Position numbers and translations under genes: made by a program. From an uncultured bacterium (GTDB lineage Bacteria; Fidelibacterota; Marinisomatia; Marinisomatales; Marinisomataceae): a stretch of 56,402 bases of DNA. Below the pieces are notes generated by a model. It saw nothing but the letters and a program-made list of their open reading frames with translations. It searched no databases and had not been told where the DNA came from. Shown here piece after piece: positions 48,642-56,402 of the stretch (positions within the stretch are counted from its first letter, which is position 1; each line of letters opens with the position of its first letter). Where the stretch lies: the NCBI GenBank assembly GCA_943841495.1, contig CALSYL010000008.1:1-56402 (forward strand), given 5' to 3'.

Positions 48642-51084
48642 TTGAGTTATAATCATAAAGCTATAGAGGCCAAATGGCAAAAATCCTGGTCTGGATAATG
48701 AAACATTTAAGTCAGAGGATGAGTCTAGCAAAAAGCCTAAATATTATGTCCTTGATATGTTTCCATATCCTTCAGGTGCCGGTTTACATGTTGGTCATGC
48801 TTTAGGTTATGTTGCTACGGATATTGTTGCACGTTATAAACGCATGAAAGGCTTTAATGTGCTCCATCCTATGGGTTGGGATGCGTTTGGTCTTCCTGCA
48901 GAGCAATATGCTATAAAAACTGGTACTCATCCAAAAATTACCACACATGAAAATGTTTCCAATTTTAAAAGACAGATTAATCGTTTAGGTTTTTCCTATG
49001 ACTGGTCAAAAGAAATCAATACAACTGACCCTGAATATTATAAGTGGACTCAATGGATATTCTTACAGCTATACAATAAAGGATTAGCTCATGAGCAGGA
49101 AGTTGCTGTTAATTGGTGTCCAGAACTAAAGGCTGTACTTGCTAATGAGGAGGTAGTAAATGGAAAATCAGACATTGGAGGTCATCCAGTAATTCGCCTG
49201 CCAATGAAGCAATGGATTTTAAAAATTACAGATTATGCTGAATCATTGCTTGAAGGTTTAGATGATTTAGATTGGCCAGGAAATATAAAAGAGCTTCAAA
49301 AAAATTGGATTGGAAGATCAGAGGGGGTAGAGCTTGGTTTTAATATTGAAAATTCCGATGATTTAATAAATGTTTATACTACTAGACCAGATACGCTTTT
49401 TGGAGCAACTTATATGGTTCTTGCTCCTGAACACACGTTGATTAACTCTCTTGTAACAGATAATAATAGAGAGAAAGTTGATGCATATATTGAAGAATCA
49501 GCTAAGAAATCTGACTTCGATAGAACAGAAGTTAATAAAGATAAAACAGGTGTATTTACAGGTAGTTATGCCATTAATCCTTTCAGCCAAGAAAAGATTG
49601 AAATTTGGATAGCAGACTATGTTCTTATAAGCTACGGAACTGGTGCAATTATGGCCGTTCCAGGTCACGATGAAAGGGATTGGGAATTTGCAACGAAATA
49701 TGATTTGCCAATTAAAGAGGTTGTAGAAGGTGGAGATGTTAGCAAGTCAGCGTTTACAGCTAAAGGAAAGTCTAAAATAGTTAATTCTAACAATGACAAT
49801 ACCTTATCTATGAATGGATTAACAGTCGATGAAGCAATTAATACTTCAATTGAATACATCGAAAAAAATGAAATTGGTAGATCTACTGTAAATTATAAGT
49901 TGAGAGATTGGTTGTTTTCTAGGCAAAGATATTGGGGAGAACCTTTTCCATTAATTCATAAAGGCGAAAATATAGAACCAATCAATGAAAAAGATTTGCC
50001 CGTGATGTTACCTGAAGTAGATAATTATAAACCATCAGATGATGGAAAGTCTCCATTATCAACTATTAAAAATTGGGTTGAAGTAAAAGATGAAAGTGGT
50101 AATATTATTGGACTTAGAGAGACAAATACTATGCCACAATGGGCAGGTTCATGTTGGTATTATTTAAGGTTTACAGATCCAAATAACACAAAAAACGCAT
50201 GGAGTAAAGATAGCGAGAAATATTGGATGCCTGTTGATTTATATATTGGTGGACAGGAGCACGCAGTACTTCATTTGCTATATGCAAGATTTTGGCATCA
50301 TGTATTACATGATTTAGGATTAGTGTCGACCAGAGAACCATTCAAAAAACTTTTTAATCAAGGTATGATACAGGGTGATGATGGTACAAAAATGAGTAAA
50401 TCTCGAGGCAATGTTATAAATCCTGAAGATATTATTGAAGAATATGGCGCTGATTCAATGAGGCTATATGAGATGTTTATGGGCCCATTAAATAAATCTA
50501 AACCATGGAGCACAAAAGGTCTTCAAGGATGTTATAGGTTTGTTAAGAAGTTATGGTCAATAGTAATCGATGATAATGGTTCATTATCGTCGAGAATATG
50601 CGATGATAAAGCTCCCAATAAAGAGACATTATTTTTGCATCATCAAACAATTAAAAAGATTGGTGAAGATATTGAAAACCTTCATTTTAATACTGCGGTA
50701 TCGCAACTAATGATTTATTGTAATCATCTTCAGAAATGCGATTCTATCTCTAAAAAATTAATCATAGAACTTATTATTATTATTGGTCCATTTGTACCGC
50801 ACTTGTCTGAAGAGCTATGGCATATGTTAGGAAACAAAGATTCTGTAACATATCAAGATTGGCCACTTTACGATGAATCAAAAATACAGCTTGATGAGGT
50901 TACAATAGCAGTTCAAGTCAATGGTAAACTTAGAGCTAATATTGAAATTGCTAAGGATTCTATTGAGAAAGATGTTGTTAATATGGCGCTTTCTCTTGAA
51001 AATGTTGAAAAGTTTACTTCTAGTGGATCAATCGTAAAAACTATTTATGTTCCAAATAGATTGCTAAACTTTGTCGTCAAGTAA
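48642..51084 (+). CDS. leuS: Leucyl-tRNA synthetase, with a frameshift near the start
   Basis: Class I synthetase. The TTG at 48642 opens MSYNHKAIEAKWQKSW, the normal LeuS beginning, but the frame stops at 48696. The next frame resumes as DNETFKSEDESSKKPKYYVLDMFPYPSGAGLHVGHALGY and runs intact to 51084. One extra base in 48690-48693 (TCTG) accounts for it; dropping the first T gives SWLDNETF. HIGH-type GLHVGH and KMSKS (DGTKMSKSRGN) and the editing domain are present. An essential gene, so sequence error or a used frameshift is more likely than decay. The 3' end overlaps the convergent membrane gene by 21 nt. Confidence 0.92.
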
Positions 51085-51732
51085 GTCTGTACCTTTAGAC
51101 ATAAACCACACCGTACCAACTAAACTTAAAACAGCAATTTTTTGATAAGTTGCATGTATAGTAAGTGATTCAATTGATTTCCATGGAGCTGGCCCGACCT
51201 CAAGAAAGATAATATATCCTAAAATTACTATCGAACAAATAAAAAGGGCGTAAGTAACGTTTTTCAAGCCTTTTGAGTAAAAAAGATATGAATATATACC
51301 CAAAGTTACTAAAGCGCCGTTAAACACTGAATTTGCAAAGAAAATATGCAAAGAATATAGTGACGGAACATCAGCAGGTGTTAAAACTACACCAAGTAGG
51401 CTTATTGAACCAAAAACAGCAGATAATTTTGCCAATAAACTAATTTTTGGATATTCCGATGTAAAAAAATCAGCAGCTTTTACTAAGTATATCAATACTG
51501 CAACAAGCTGAACAAACATACCAATTGAGAAAAGAATAATAGAAATACTGTTATCATCACCAGAATGACTAGTTGTGCGTCCAAGATCACTTATAAAATT
51601 TTTAAAAAAGTTATAGTAAGGTGTTTGTTTCTCGACATAATTACCACCACCATAAAAAAATGCAGCGAGCGTTAAAAGACTGAGGTAGGAAAGTAGTAAT
51701 ATTCTTGTTGTTTTGCCTAGTGTATATCTCAT
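51064..51732 (-). CDS. Multi-pass membrane protein (DUF998-like)
   Basis: 222 residues with about six hydrophobic helices. The N-terminal NFFKNFISDLGRTTSHSGDDNS followed by helices and VVLTPADVPSLYSLHIFFANSVF resembles DUF998-type proteins, but this was not searched. Function unknown. A 16-bp perfect palindrome lies 15 bp upstream of its start. Confidence 0.65.
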   Translation of the reverse strand: MRYTLGKTTRILLLSYLSLLTLAAFFYGGGNYVEKQTPYYNFFKNFISDLGRTTSHSGDDNSISIILFSIGMFVQLVAVLIYLVKAADFFTSEYPKISLLAKLSAVFGSISLLGVVLTPADVPSLYSLHIFFANSVFNGALVTLGIYSYLFYSKGLKNVTYALFICSIVILGYIIFLEVGPAPWKSIESLTIHATYQKIAVLSLVGTVWFMSKGTDLLDDKV

Positions 51733-51843: not shown

Positions 51844-53049
51844 TCATTTACTTAAGGTTTTACCCATTTTTTCAATTAAACCTACCACTAACGCATTACC
51901 CATACAAAAATATCTCCAATTATCAGGCATGCCAGTATTTGTCCATCCCGCTGGAAACCCACATATTTTTTCAACTTCATCTGGAGTTAGTGTTCTATAT
52001 GCATTTTTTGTTGGATCCATAATTATATGTTTGAATCTACTTGGTGTTTGTCCGCCTTCAGATGTAATGATTGTTCGTGCTGGAGCTTCTAATGGTTCAG
52101 GAAATGGCATTGAACCTTCCGAATAAAAGAATGTGCCACCGTCTTTTCTTTTCACTTTTTTCTTTTTAGCGCCTTTTAGCTCTTTCCATTTCCAAATTTG
52201 CGCTTCATCCCTAACAAAATAATTATCATCAACAGTTTTATCTAATATGTCTCCTAAAACCGTTTGTTTACCTTCATAATTTGGGAAAACCTTCTTTGTG
52301 CTGATTGTAGTATTAAATAAAAAGCCAGAATTCAAAAAATGATATGAGAATGTATCACTTATTGATTGCGTATCAGCTATATTTTTGACCTCATCTAAGA
52401 GATTGAGTTCGAGCGAGTTGTCTTGTTTAATTTTAAATTCGTCACTAAAAAAACCTTTATTATGAATAAAATCAGGTTCTAAATGCCTTTTTTCCATATT
52501 TTTGTACCATTTAGTGCCTTTATGAGCTGCAAAGAAGAATGTTCTACGTCTTTTTTGAGGAAATCCGTATTCTGCGGCATTAATGACTCTCCATTCGACA
52601 CAATACCCAAGATTGTGTAAACAAGACAGAATTACCCCAAAATCACGTCCTCTTTGAAACGTTGGTGAAGTTATTAGCCGATCTACATTTTCTAACAAAA
52701 CGTACTTTGGTTTTTTTTTACGTAAAATTTGTTCAATATTCCACCATAAAACACCTTTTTTACCCTTAATTCCCTGCGCTTGAACTGTTGCAACAGAATA
52801 GTCTTGGCATGGAAATCCGCCTACAAGTAATTCGTGATTAGGAATTTTACTATAATTAACTTTATCTATATCAGTGTTTAAATCTTTAAAAGAGTCTTTA
52901 AAATGACTGCTATAGCAATCAAAAGCATGTTGAACTTTAGTCTTTGGTTCCCATTGATTTGCCCAAATAGTTTTATGTCCAGACTTTTCTAATCCTAATC
53001 TAAAGCCACCAACTCCAGCAAAAAGTTCTACTACATTCAATTTAGACAT
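51844..53049 (-). CDS. DNA (cytosine-5-)-methyltransferase
   Basis: m5C methyltransferase of 401 residues. SAM-binding motif I ELFAGVGGFRLGLE (8-21), catalytic Cys81 in GGFPCQDYS, motif VI LLENVDR (E120), motif VIII QKRRRTFFFA, a long variable target-recognition region at ~180-330, and a C-terminal GNALVVGLIEKMG (motif X). The recognised site cannot be read from sequence. It is divergent from a nuclease-helicase gene with a 76-nt spacer, the layout of a restriction or defence locus in which the methylase protects self DNA. Confidence 0.95.
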   Translation of the reverse strand: MSKLNVVELFAGVGGFRLGLEKSGHKTIWANQWEPKTKVQHAFDCYSSHFKDSFKDLNTDIDKVNYSKIPNHELLVGGFPCQDYSVATVQAQGIKGKKGVLWWNIEQILRKKKPKYVLLENVDRLITSPTFQRGRDFGVILSCLHNLGYCVEWRVINAAEYGFPQKRRRTFFFAAHKGTKWYKNMEKRHLEPDFIHNKGFFSDEFKIKQDNSLELNLLDEVKNIADTQSISDTFSYHFLNSGFLFNTTISTKKVFPNYEGKQTVLGDILDKTVDDNYFVRDEAQIWKWKELKGAKKKKVKRKDGGTFFYSEGSMPFPEPLEAPARTIITSEGGQTPSRFKHIIMDPTKNAYRTLTPDEVEKICGFPAGWTNTGMPDNWRYFCMGNALVVGLIEKMGKTLSK

Positions 53050-53125
53050 TCACTAATTTAATTTTATTAAAACTTCTATCATACATTAATATTGTTGACT
53101 TTAATATATAATAGTACATTTATAG

Positions 53126-55186
53126 ATGTCTTTAAAAAATATCAATATTGATGAATATTTCGATGCTGGCTTAAATGATAACTTATTAGATAGCTTGTAC
53201 ACTCCCTGCCTTAAAAATTCTATAATTTATAATAGAGTATCTGGATACTTTAGTACACAATCACTTTCTGCTGTTGCTTCAGGAATGGCAAATTTTATCA
53301 AAAATGAAGGTAAATATAGACTTATTTTTAGCAAAAATATCCAAAGCATTGAAGACTATGAGTCTATTAAAAATGGATATACAAATCAATTTGAAGAAGA
53401 TTTTACAAACGATATAAAAAAGCTTGAGCAAATGCTAAAAGATAGGCCTAGAAGGATTATTGGTTGGATGATAGCGAATGATTTTCTAGAGATCAAAATA
53501 GCTTTTAAAAAACCTGATGACGGCGGTTTTCTCCATTCAAAATGGGGAAATTTTGAAGATTCAAATGGAAACAAAATTTATTATAACGGATCAATAAATG
53601 AATCAGAAAATTCATGGACAAAACAAATAGAAAGTGCAAATGTTTTCTGTTCATGGTTAAATAAGTATGATAAAAAAAGAGTTAATAGAAGTTTTCAAGT
53701 TTTTGAAGACTACTGGAACAATAATGCTCCCAAAGTCCAAGTTATTGATTTTCCACAAGTCCATAAAGATCAATTTATAATAAATAATGATATTAAAACT
53801 AAAGATGATTTCACCAACCAGTCATTACTCCTAGATCAAGATATTGCCTCCCTTTTTGAAAGAAATGACAATGTAAAATTTACAGAATATAAGCCATATG
53901 AGTACCAACAAGAGGCAATTGATAATTTAGTTCAAAATAATTTTAAGGGAATATTTGCTCTAGCAACAGGCTTAGGCAAAACTTTTACATCTCTTTTCTC
54001 AATCAAAGAGTACGCTAGAACAGTCAATAACAGATATTTTTGTGCAATAGTTTGCCCTTCAGAGTCTTTAATTTATCAATGGGCAGACGAAGTAAGGAAA
54101 ATATTAGGTATTGATCCTTTGATTCTTAAAGACGAAAAAAATTGGAAGCTTTCATTGGATCAGGCAATTCTAGATCTTAATAATGAATTTGAAGATATTG
54201 TTATATGTTTAGTCACCTATCAGTCATTTTACAAAGATGCATTTATAGATAATGTTAAAAAATGTGATGCTAAAAAAGCAATTATTTGCGATGAAGTTCA
54301 TAATGCAGGAGCTCCAACTTGGCAAAAAGGATTAATTGATGATTTTGATTGCCGAATCGCCTTGAGCGCTACCCCAAAGAGATATTTTGATGAAGAAGGA
54401 ACCAATTTAATTGAATCGTATTTTGAAGGAATAGTTATTGAAAGAGATTTAAGATGGGGCATTAAAAATAACTTCCTTTCCCCTTATAATTATCATATTT
54501 CAATGGTTAACTTAAATGATGATGAGTTAAATGAGTATAGAGATATTACATCTAAGATGATGAAATATTTCGATAAAAATAAACAATTTCAAAGCAAGCC
54601 TTTTATGATTAAAGCCAATGAAAGAGCAAAAATTATTAAAACAGCAAGCAGTAAGTATTTGGCATTTGAGGATTTAATCAAAGAATTAAACTATGATTTA
54701 AATGGCGGCTTTATTTTTTGTGGAAGCACACCATTTTTAAATAATATTCAATCAATTATGAAAAAGAATGATATAAAGTATCGAATATTTATATCTGATT
54801 CTAAAACAGATGATAGAAAAGATATAATTGAGAGATTTAAACACCATAGATTAGATGCAATTGTGGCAATCGACTGTCTTGATGAAGGTATAGATATCCC
54901 TACTGCTGAGACTGCAATTATATTAAGCAGTTCAAGCAATTCAAAACAATATATTCAAAGAAGAGGAAGAGTTTTGAGAAAGACAAGTAAAAAATCAAAA
55001 AAAATTGCAAATATTTATGACTTTATCTGCATCCCTCCAATTGATGATAACTCTACATTTAAAATGGAACAATCAATGATCAAGAAACAACTGGAAAGAC
55101 TCAATGATTTTTCATTAATTTCGTTAAATCATAGCAAAAATGAGAATTTAATAAACGAGCTAAAAGCTGAATGGAAAATAGATTGA
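53126..55186 (+). CDS. HKD/PLD-nuclease fused to SF2 DEAD/DEAH helicase
   Basis: 686 residues. The N-terminal PLD-like domain (residues ~30-170: NRVSGYFSTQSLSAVASGMANF, then HSKWGN with H137 and K139 and NGSINESENSW) is a phospholipase D/HKD nuclease type. The SF2 helicase follows: Walker A ATGLGKT (~280-286), DEVH (~389), SATPKR, and motif VI QYIQRRGRVLRK (~611). No DUF3427 or other C-terminal extension is present. It resembles ATP-dependent restriction enzymes that translocate on DNA and cut with a PLD centre. TTGACT lies ~30 nt upstream as a possible -35. It overlaps the next gene by 16 nt. Confidence 0.88.
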   Translation: MSLKNINIDEYFDAGLNDNLLDSLYTPCLKNSIIYNRVSGYFSTQSLSAVASGMANFIKNEGKYRLIFSKNIQSIEDYESIKNGYTNQFEEDFTNDIKKLEQMLKDRPRRIIGWMIANDFLEIKIAFKKPDDGGFLHSKWGNFEDSNGNKIYYNGSINESENSWTKQIESANVFCSWLNKYDKKRVNRSFQVFEDYWNNNAPKVQVIDFPQVHKDQFIINNDIKTKDDFTNQSLLLDQDIASLFERNDNVKFTEYKPYEYQQEAIDNLVQNNFKGIFALATGLGKTFTSLFSIKEYARTVNNRYFCAIVCPSESLIYQWADEVRKILGIDPLILKDEKNWKLSLDQAILDLNNEFEDIVICLVTYQSFYKDAFIDNVKKCDAKKAIICDEVHNAGAPTWQKGLIDDFDCRIALSATPKRYFDEEGTNLIESYFEGIVIERDLRWGIKNNFLSPYNYHISMVNLNDDELNEYRDITSKMMKYFDKNKQFQSKPFMIKANERAKIIKTASSKYLAFEDLIKELNYDLNGGFIFCGSTPFLNNIQSIMKKNDIKYRIFISDSKTDDRKDIIERFKHHRLDAIVAIDCLDEGIDIPTAETAIILSSSSNSKQYIQRRGRVLRKTSKKSKKIANIYDFICIPPIDDNSTFKMEQSMIKKQLERLNDFSLISLNHSKNENLINELKAEWKID

Positions 55187-55389
55187 AAACTTTTTCAGAT
55201 AAAAGCCTGGAAATAATAAAGAAAAATTCCAAAAAAGATGATAACGATGAGGCTTATAATTTTTTGAATTTTGCAATTAATTTACAGGCAATTCAAAAAT
55301 ATAACAGTTTATCACAATTTAAATCAAAATATGTTTCTGCAATTGAAAATCAATTGCAAAAAAAACTTAAAAGAAAATCAAAGAAATGA
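55171..55389 (+). CDS. Small helical protein of unknown function in the defence locus
   Basis: 72 residues, Lys/Asn/Gln-rich, no membrane segment, predicted mostly helical (DNDEAYNFLNFAINLQAIQKYNSLSQFKSKYVSAIENQLQKKLKRKSKK), ending in a basic tail. No family recognised. It overlaps the helicase end by 16 nt and the ATPase start by 4 nt (ATGA), so it is almost surely translated with them and likely part of the same system. Confidence 0.65.
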   Translation: MENRLKTFSDKSLEIIKKNSKKDDNDEAYNFLNFAINLQAIQKYNSLSQFKSKYVSAIENQLQKKLKRKSKK

Positions 55390-56402
55390 AAATACAAGAA
55401 ATAATTTTTTCAAATTTTCGACAATTCAGAGGTGAGCATAAACTAGAACTTGATACTAGTACAGATAAGCCTTTTAATATAATATTAGGGAATAATGGTT
55501 TTGGTAAAACATCTACGTACAGAGCATTAAATTGGTGTTTATTTAGCGAAGAGCCTAGATTGAAATCGTCGCAAAACAATTTTAGCAGTTACAGACTAAA
55601 CTTTAAAACCTCATTAGATATGAAAGTCGGTGAAACTGAGTCTGTATCAGTCAAATTGAAATTAATAGATTCAAAAAGTGAAGTAATAAATATTGAAAGG
55701 ACAGAGTTTTATAAAAAAATCGCAGATAAAACTTCTTCATCTCCAGTACAATTAAAGAAAATTTTAAAAGATGAAGAACTCACTATTTCATATTACGATA
55801 ATAATGGATTAAAAGAACTTGAAGATAATCAGGCTGAACAATTTCTAGAAAGCAGAATTATAAACAAAAGTATTAAAGATTTTTTCTTTTTTGACGGTCA
55901 AGATATTCAAGAATCAGTAACTAGAAATAACTCATCTACAATTTCTAATCATTTAGATATTCTAACAAGTATAACGGATATGCAAGGCGTTTTAAGGAAT
56001 TTAAATTCATTAAGAAAAGATTTGCTTAAAAAGGTTCCCAAATCGTCTTCTGGAGATTTACAAGGTATAATTGCTGATAAAATTCTCAAAAAAAATCAAC
56101 TTCACAAAAAAACTGAGCTAAAAACTAATTCATTGAAAGGATTAGAGGATTCTATAGAAAAACTTAAAAATGATATAATAGACTATGAAAAAATAATTAG
56201 CAAGAATCAGGCAACAAAAGAATTATTAATCATGAGAGATAATCTTGATACAAAAATTCAAGTTTTAAGAATGGAATACGACAAAATTGATGAATCAAAT
56301 AAATCAGATATTATTGGATCATTTGCAAGTATTGTGTTAAGGAGAGAAATTGACGTGTTTGACTCTATTATTCAAGAAAAGCTTGAAAACGAAGAGCTTC
56401 CT
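55386..56402 (+). CDS. DndD-like SMC/Rad50-type ATPase, 3'-truncated by window end
   Basis: Open for 339 codons to the window end. N-terminal MKIQEIIFSNFRQFRGEHKLELD then Walker A LGNNGFGKTS (residues 34-43), the SMC/AAA_23 pattern. The DndD-type motif FFFFDGQDIQES comes near residue 172-183, followed by coiled-coil segments (KKNQLHKKTELKTNSLKGLEDSIEKLKNDIIDYEKII). Closest in style to DndD and related defence ATPases. The C-terminal Walker B half is outside the window. It joins the preceding gene by ATGA. Confidence 0.85.
   Translation, partial: MKIQEIIFSNFRQFRGEHKLELDTSTDKPFNIILGNNGFGKTSTYRALNWCLFSEEPRLKSSQNNFSSYRLNFKTSLDMKVGETESVSVKLKLIDSKSEVINIERTEFYKKIADKTSSSPVQLKKILKDEELTISYYDNNGLKELEDNQAEQFLESRIINKSIKDFFFFDGQDIQESVTRNNSSTISNHLDILTSITDMQGVLRNLNSLRKDLLKKVPKSSSGDLQGIIADKILKKNQLHKKTELKTNSLKGLEDSIEKLKNDIIDYEKIISKNQATKELLIMRDNLDTKIQVLRMEYDKIDESNKSDIIGSFASIVLRREIDVFDSIIQEKLENEELP

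What the first reader, a model, noticed from the sequence alone, without database searches (positions are those of the whole stretch)
51844..56402. Candidate defence system: m5C methylase, HKD-helicase, small protein, DndD-like ATPase
A divergent cytosine methylase faces a three-gene coupled operon: a PLD/HKD nuclease fused to an SF2 helicase, a 72-residue unknown, and an SMC-type ATPase with DndD motif. CglI and NgoAVII restriction systems combine an m5C methylase, a PLD nuclease and a helicase, but not with a DndD-like partner. Neither full DISARM nor Dnd/Ssp sets are present. The combination could be a new or hybrid anti-phage system.
Basis: partly seen in the sequence, partly recalled or inferred. 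Interest (0 to 1): 0.65.

Follow-up and report, generated by a model that had tools for sequence, protein, structure and literature searches.

The report
PbeABCD phage-defence cassette beside cytosine methylase
The four genes are one known kind of bacterial anti-virus cassette (PbeABCD) sitting back to back with a DNA-marking enzyme, cut off by the end of the assembled contig, so this is a recognisable member of a known system rather than a new one.

Summary
A divergent m5C methylase (51844-53049, -) faces three overlapping genes: an HKD-nuclease/SF2-helicase (53126-55186), a 72-aa protein (55171-55389) and the N-terminal half of an ABC/SMC-type ATPase (55386-56402), cut by the true end of the contig. 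It is not a new hybrid. PADLOC names the first gene PbeA (8e-196) and the last PbeC (3e-31). Size, position and gene order make the small gene PbeB. This is the PbeABCD system (Xiong 2019), also described as the CxC-ABC-ATPase/DndE system, for which cytosine-5-methylase neighbours are already published (Rakesh 2024). No DndC was found in the 94.6%-complete genome, so phosphorothioation is an unlikely partner. The methylase belongs to a family that often sits beside Sau3AI- or BglII/BstYI-type endonucleases, so GATC-type recognition is inferred. The same head-to-head arrangement occurs in Aurantimicrobium. The locus occupies a genus-wide defence hotspot beside leuS. A sister species keeps a same-family methylase there, but with a different ABC-ATPase, a DndE-like protein and a GIY-YIG gene. 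Likely action: methylation marks self; PbeC/PbeD survey DNA and direct the PbeA motor-nuclease at unmarked DNA. Coupling of this methylase to Pbe is likely, not proven. New member of a known kind.

The parts
51844..53049 (-). C5-cytosine DNA methyltransferase, 401 aa, of the family often paired with Sau3AI/BglII-type (GATC) endonucleases; likely self-marking partner
   Evidence: relatives beside Sau3AI or BglII/BstYI endonucleases
52804..52812 (-). catalytic PCQ motif of the methylase (residues 80-82); ENV at residues 120-122
   Evidence: invariant in alignment A4
53050..53125 (.). 76-bp divergent intergenic region between the methylase and pbeA; homology to the sister species ends at about 53060
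53126..55186 (+). pbeA: HKD (PLD) nuclease fused to SF2 (type I/III R-like) helicase, 686 aa
   Evidence: PADLOC PbeA 8e-196; AlphaFold model pLDDT 85.7, best solved match SauUSI
53534..53632 (+). HKD active-site stretch H137-x-K139 ... D145 ... GSxN158 ... E169
   Evidence: H, K, D, N, E invariant in 37 sequences
53963..53989 (+). helicase Walker A (ATGLGKT); DEVH box at 54290-54301, motif VI QRRGR at 54956-54970
55171..55389 (+). pbeB: small protein, 72 aa, overlaps pbeA by 16 nt and pbeC by 4 nt
   Evidence: position and size as in complete relatives; sequence similarity weak
55386..56402 (+). pbeC N-terminal 339 aa (CxC/DndD-clade ABC ATPase), truncated by the contig end just before the Zn-hook position
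   Evidence: PADLOC PbeC 3e-31; alignment A2; contig length 56402
55488..55511 (+). Walker A of PbeC (GNNGFGKT)
51064..51732 (-). 222-aa membrane protein, left boundary of the defence hotspot together with leuS (48757-51084)
   Evidence: conserved beside variable cargo in congeners

Best explanation
The locus is a PbeABCD (CxC-ABC-ATPase/DndE) defence cassette, cut after half of pbeC, whose self-mark is probably base methylation by the divergent m5C methylase instead of phosphorothioation. Proposed working: (1, inferred) the methylase puts m5C on a GATC-type site in the host genome. (2, inferred from Rakesh 2024) PbeC with the expected DndE-like PbeD scans DNA for those sites and their modification state. 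(3, inferred) on unmarked DNA the complex recruits or licenses PbeA, an ATP-driven SF2 motor with an HKD nuclease, which blocks replication of and/or cuts the invader; PbeB is a regulator or assembly factor. Shown here: gene identities, order and overlaps, intact HKD and helicase motifs, no DndC and no MutH/Sau3AI gene found in the genome, the methylase's family context, and the same methylase-pbeA head-to-head layout in a distant bacterium. Not shown: PbeD and the CxC hook (beyond the contig), methylation, target site, and any antiviral activity.
For: PbeA 8e-196, PbeC 3e-31. Order A-B-C-D in complete relatives. HKD and helicase residues invariant; model closest to SauUSI, an HKD nuclease with a translocating SF2 motor. 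DndC not found in the own genome. Partner modules swap among Pbe loci: Ssp 32, Dnd 19, N4/N6 MTase 12, m5C 2, unassigned 26 of 91 loci. Aurantimicrobium minutum L066 has an m5C homologue (45% identity), 89 bp from and divergent to a complete pbeABCD. MTase relatives sit beside Sau3AI, BglII or BstYI-type nucleases. Own genome has no MutH/Sau3AI match. Published: methylase-coupled CxC systems and Pbe near MTases.
Against: pbeD and the CxC hook are not in the assembly. In Aurantimicrobium the methylase also abuts a BglII-type endonuclease, so there it may serve that enzyme. A 63% identical methylase elsewhere in the phylum (G099) stands alone among non-defence genes. G023 has an 85% identical methylase at the same site but no pbeA was found in it. 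Xiong 2019 found that a Pbe system did not cleave viral DNA, so step 3 may be replication block rather than cutting. PbeB is assigned by position only.
Confidence: 0.68

Rival explanations
1. The Pbe cassette is real but the methylase is an unrelated neighbour (orphan, or left from a GATC type II R-M system) in a defence hotspot; Pbe works with another mark or is inactive.
For: The site is a hotspot with other methylases and R-M sets in congeners. Same-family methylases occur alone or with Vsr in the phylum. A same-family methylase stays in sister G019 and in G023 without pbeA.
Against: Head-to-head methylase-pbeA layout recurs in Aurantimicrobium; no DndC found in the genome; methylase-Pbe links are reported as frequent. 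In G019 the methylase again sits beside an ABC-ATPase and DndE-like pair.
Confidence: 0.25
2. A CglI/NgoAVII-like type II R-M system with a DndD-like accessory.
For: m5C methylase, HKD nuclease and helicase are all present.
Against: HKD and helicase are one protein here; no separate R protein and no Pfam DNA-recognition domain on PbeA. PbeA-family models win by hundreds of bits. The ABC ATPase and small protein are standard Pbe parts.
Confidence: 0.03
3. A Dnd/Pbe phosphorothioation system whose dnd genes lie in the missing part of the genome.
For: 19 of 91 Pbe loci have dnd genes beside them; about 5% of the genome is missing and the contig ends here.
Against: No DndC in the own genome; the only DndD hit is PbeC itself; DUF4007 of Ssp not found either, though its control rang nowhere.
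Confidence: 0.07

Closest known systems
DndCDEA-PbeABCD (Xiong et al. 2019, PMC6459918)
   Same: PbeA HKD-helicase, small PbeB, PbeC ABC ATPase, in the same order
   Different: No DndC/phosphorothioation genes found; m5C methylase instead; pbeD not in the assembly
CxC-ABC-ATPase/DndE systems with cytosine methylases (Rakesh et al. 2024, PMC10853773, Fig. 4A iv)
   Same: Same cassette with a cytosine-5 methylase neighbour; closest published description
   Different: Hook and DndE not visible here; no MTaX1 gene seen in the part available
SauUSI (PMC7913695, PDB 7clg)
   Same: N-terminal HKD nuclease plus SF2 motor in one chain; best Foldseek match
   Different: PbeA is 686 aa against 953 and lacks the C-terminal SRA target-recognition domain
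Sau3AI / BglII / BstYI type II R-M systems
   Same: The methylase belongs to a family that often sits next to these nucleases
   Different: No such endonuclease in the window; no MutH/Sau3AI gene found in the genome
NgoAVII / CglI
   Same: m5C methylase, HKD nuclease and helicase
   Different: Nuclease and helicase are fused here, and the ABC ATPase and small protein are extra

Membership tests
PbeABCD (CxC-ABC/DndE system) | PbeA: HKD nuclease fused to SF2 helicase | tested here: met
   PADLOC 8e-196; invariant H, K, D, N, E; SauUSI-like model
PbeABCD (CxC-ABC/DndE system) | PbeB: small, fast-evolving protein between pbeA and pbeC | tested here: inconclusive
   Position, size and overlaps fit; no family model hits, alignment weak
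PbeABCD (CxC-ABC/DndE system) | PbeC: DndD/CxC-clade ABC ATPase | tested here: met
   N-terminal half only; PbeC 3e-31, better than DndD 2e-18
PbeABCD (CxC-ABC/DndE system) | CxC Zn-hook in the PbeC coiled coil | not testable with these tools
   Contig ends just before the position where relatives read CICG
PbeABCD (CxC-ABC/DndE system) | PbeD: DndE-like gene after pbeC | not testable with these tools
   Beyond the contig end
DndCDEA-PbeABCD (phosphorothioation version) | DndC and the other PT genes | tested here: not met
   TIGR03183 not found in the 94.6% complete genome
Methylase-coupled CxC/DndE system | Cytosine-5 methylase in the same neighbourhood | tested here: met
   51844-53049, divergent, 76 bp from pbeA
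Methylase-coupled CxC/DndE system | Functional dependence of restriction on the methylase | not testable with these tools
   Needs a bench test
DISARM | DrmA helicase and DrmB | tested here: not met
   No DrmA or DrmB among the hits listed for the four genes; neighbourhood truncated
SauUSI-type (type IV) | C-terminal SRA domain | tested here: not met
   PbeA ends at 686 aa with no SRA hit
Sau3AI/BglII-type type II R-M | Cognate endonuclease beside the methylase | tested here: not met
   None in the window; MutH not found in the genome; BglII not found but its control rang nowhere

The most novel reading that the evidence does not exclude
A GATC-type m5C methylase is a portable self-mark shared by interchangeable ABC-ATPase/DndE effectors: at one chromosomal site, one species pairs it with PbeABC while its sister pairs a same-family methylase with a different, hook-less ABC ATPase, a DndE-like protein and a GIY-YIG nuclease, the exchange junction running through the methylase gene.
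Probability: 0.2. Interest if true: 0.5.

Novelty: new member of a known kind. Interest (0 to 1): 0.3.

Why it matters
Whether PbeABCD can use base methylation instead of phosphorothioation as its self-mark was raised in 2019 and supported by comparative genomics in 2024; I found no experimental test in the papers searched. This locus gives a concrete case with a predicted mark (m5C in a GATC-type site), a genome in which no DndC was found, and a sister species with a swapped effector.

Tried and rejected
CglI/NgoAVII, DISARM, Dnd and Ssp were considered and rejected on gene content. A phage origin was not supported: single-protein scans of viral contigs with PbeA and with the methylase found nothing; alignment scans found only distant or moderate relatives. 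GATC depletion in the window (0.75 of expected) is uninformative, as congeners without this methylase show 0.62-1.0. Promoter and terminator scans were no better than shuffles. The PbeA tree gave no m5C clade: window and Aurantimicrobium fall in different places, and the window sits on a long, weakly placed branch. The 48% identity of the G019 methylase is a product of frame breaks: its DNA is 75-90% identical. The DUF4007 and BglII searches of the own genome had silent controls and do not prove absence.

Full report
What is there. The window is the whole of contig C8 of a 958,662-bp, 94.6% complete genome. Its last 4.6 kb hold a divergent C5-cytosine methylase (51844-53049, -; PF00145 5e-67) and three overlapping + strand genes: 53126-55186, 55171-55389 and 55386-56402, the last open at the contig end.

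Identity. PADLOC gives PbeA at 8e-196 over residues 2-674 for the helicase and PbeC at 3e-31 for the ATPase, ahead of DndD at 2e-18. NCBIfam adds dnd_restrict_1 (3e-109) and DndD (2e-15), both below their curated cut-offs. In plasmid and genome relatives the order is PbeA, a small protein of about 50-80 aa, PbeC, then a DndE-like protein. The 72-aa gene holds the PbeB position, but its sequence is too divergent to prove it. PbeA has H137-x-K139, D145, GSxN158 and E169, with H, K, D, N and E invariant in 37 homologues, and intact SF2 motifs. An AlphaFold model (pLDDT 85.7) finds SauUSI as its best solved match (E 1e-21, 649 columns; whole-chain TM-score only about 0.3, so the domain order matches but not the overall pose), an HKD nuclease with a translocating SF2 motor. 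PbeA lacks SauUSI's SRA domain. The PbeC coiled-coil hook, CICG in most relatives, lies just past the contig end.

What it is known as. Xiong 2019 (PMC6459918) named PbeABCD as the partner of Dnd phosphorothioation and showed that it halts viral DNA replication without visible cleavage; 155 of 320 dnd-less pbeAC loci had methyltransferases nearby. Rakesh 2024 (PMC10853773) showed this to be the CxC-ABC-ATPase/DndE system, described cytosine-5 methylases in some of its neighbourhoods, and argued that the HKD nuclease does cut. So the combination is already on record.

The mark. DndC was not found in the genome and the only DndD hit is PbeC. The methylase is 43-53% identical to enzymes on plasmids, several of which adjoin MutH/Sau3AI or BglII/BstYI endonucleases; viral-contig and same-phylum relatives adjoin Sau3AI, BglII-type or Vsr genes, or none of the queried nucleases. 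Sau3AI, BstYI and BglII recognise sites containing GATC (general knowledge), so a GATC-type target is inferred. No MutH/Sau3AI gene was found in the genome.

Is the methylase coupled to Pbe? For: Aurantimicrobium minutum (L066) has an m5C homologue (428 aa, 45% identity) head to head with a complete pbeABCD, 89 bp apart. Among 91 PbeA loci the neighbouring modification module varies (Ssp 32, Dnd 19, N4/N6 methylase 12, m5C 2, unassigned 26), with 24 label changes needed on the tree when the unassigned loci are counted as a label of their own. Labels come from phmmer on loci of limited length, so they are a guide only. Against: in L066 the methylase also abuts a BglII-type endonuclease, and in G099 a 63% identical methylase stands alone among non-defence genes.

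The hotspot. In congeners, leuS and a 222-aa membrane protein are followed by different cargo: type II or type I R-M sets, other m5C methylases, ATPases, or nothing (G014). No congener has pbeA. Sister species G019 is 99% identical to the window in leuS and the membrane protein; identity then falls through the methylase (89.5, 83.7, 75.3%) and ends at its start codon. Beyond it G019 has, on the - strand (all genes in the methylase's direction), a GIY-YIG ORF (9e-10), a DndE-like ORF and a 581-aa partial DndD/PbeC-like ATPase only 24% identical to the window's PbeC, with LIIPG where CICG is expected. Its methylase frame is broken by about 22 gaps while leuS has none; pseudogene and mosaic assembly cannot be told apart. 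G023 carries an 85% identical methylase fragment at the same site, cut by its contig end. This suggests repeated cargo exchange next to, or through, the methylase.

Mechanism and confidence. I put about 0.95 on the cassette being PbeABCD, about 0.7 on the methylase being its self-mark, and about 0.6 on GATC-type recognition. Nuclease attack versus replication block is open. Overall this is a new member of a known kind; the added value is a specific, testable mark and the effector swap in a sister species.

Noticed in passing
L057:8017-9264, L061:7897-10008, L067:3240-4451, L122:4711-6627 (each upstream of and close to pbeA); L064:8919-10379 (after pbeD): A radical-SAM-like gene (CxxxCxxC motif in all five; PF04055 5e-4 in L061 and 1.3e-6 in L064) flanks Pbe cassettes with no dnd, ssp or MTase found by my queries: possibly another modification chemistry used with PbeABCD. 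Rakesh 2024 mentions radical SAM only for DndC.
   Followed up: partly
L031, L035, L036, L038, L040-L042, L047-L049, L052, L053, L070, L075, L077, L080, L082 and others: Ssp-type genes (DUF4007, SspC-like, SspB-like) flank pbeA in about a third of 91 loci, so Pbe seems to pair with Ssp as well as Dnd.
   Followed up: partly
L222:7690-12466 (G019:C1, sister species): m5C methylase (frame broken), GIY-YIG ORF, DndE-like ORF and a hook-less DndD/PbeC-like ATPase at the site where the window has PbeABC; possibly a variant ABC-ATPase/DndE system without PbeA.
   Followed up: partly
window 48757-51732 and L222-L232: leuS plus a 222-aa membrane protein borders a defence hotspot across this small-genome genus; the membrane-protein gene is duplicated in G019 and G023, which might help recombination.
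   Followed up: partly
L066:14667-15245 (-): A second, weakly BglII-like ORF (1e-5) lies beyond pbeD in Aurantimicrobium, so nuclease-like genes may flank the Pbe cassette on both sides; Pfam gives no hit.
   Followed up: no
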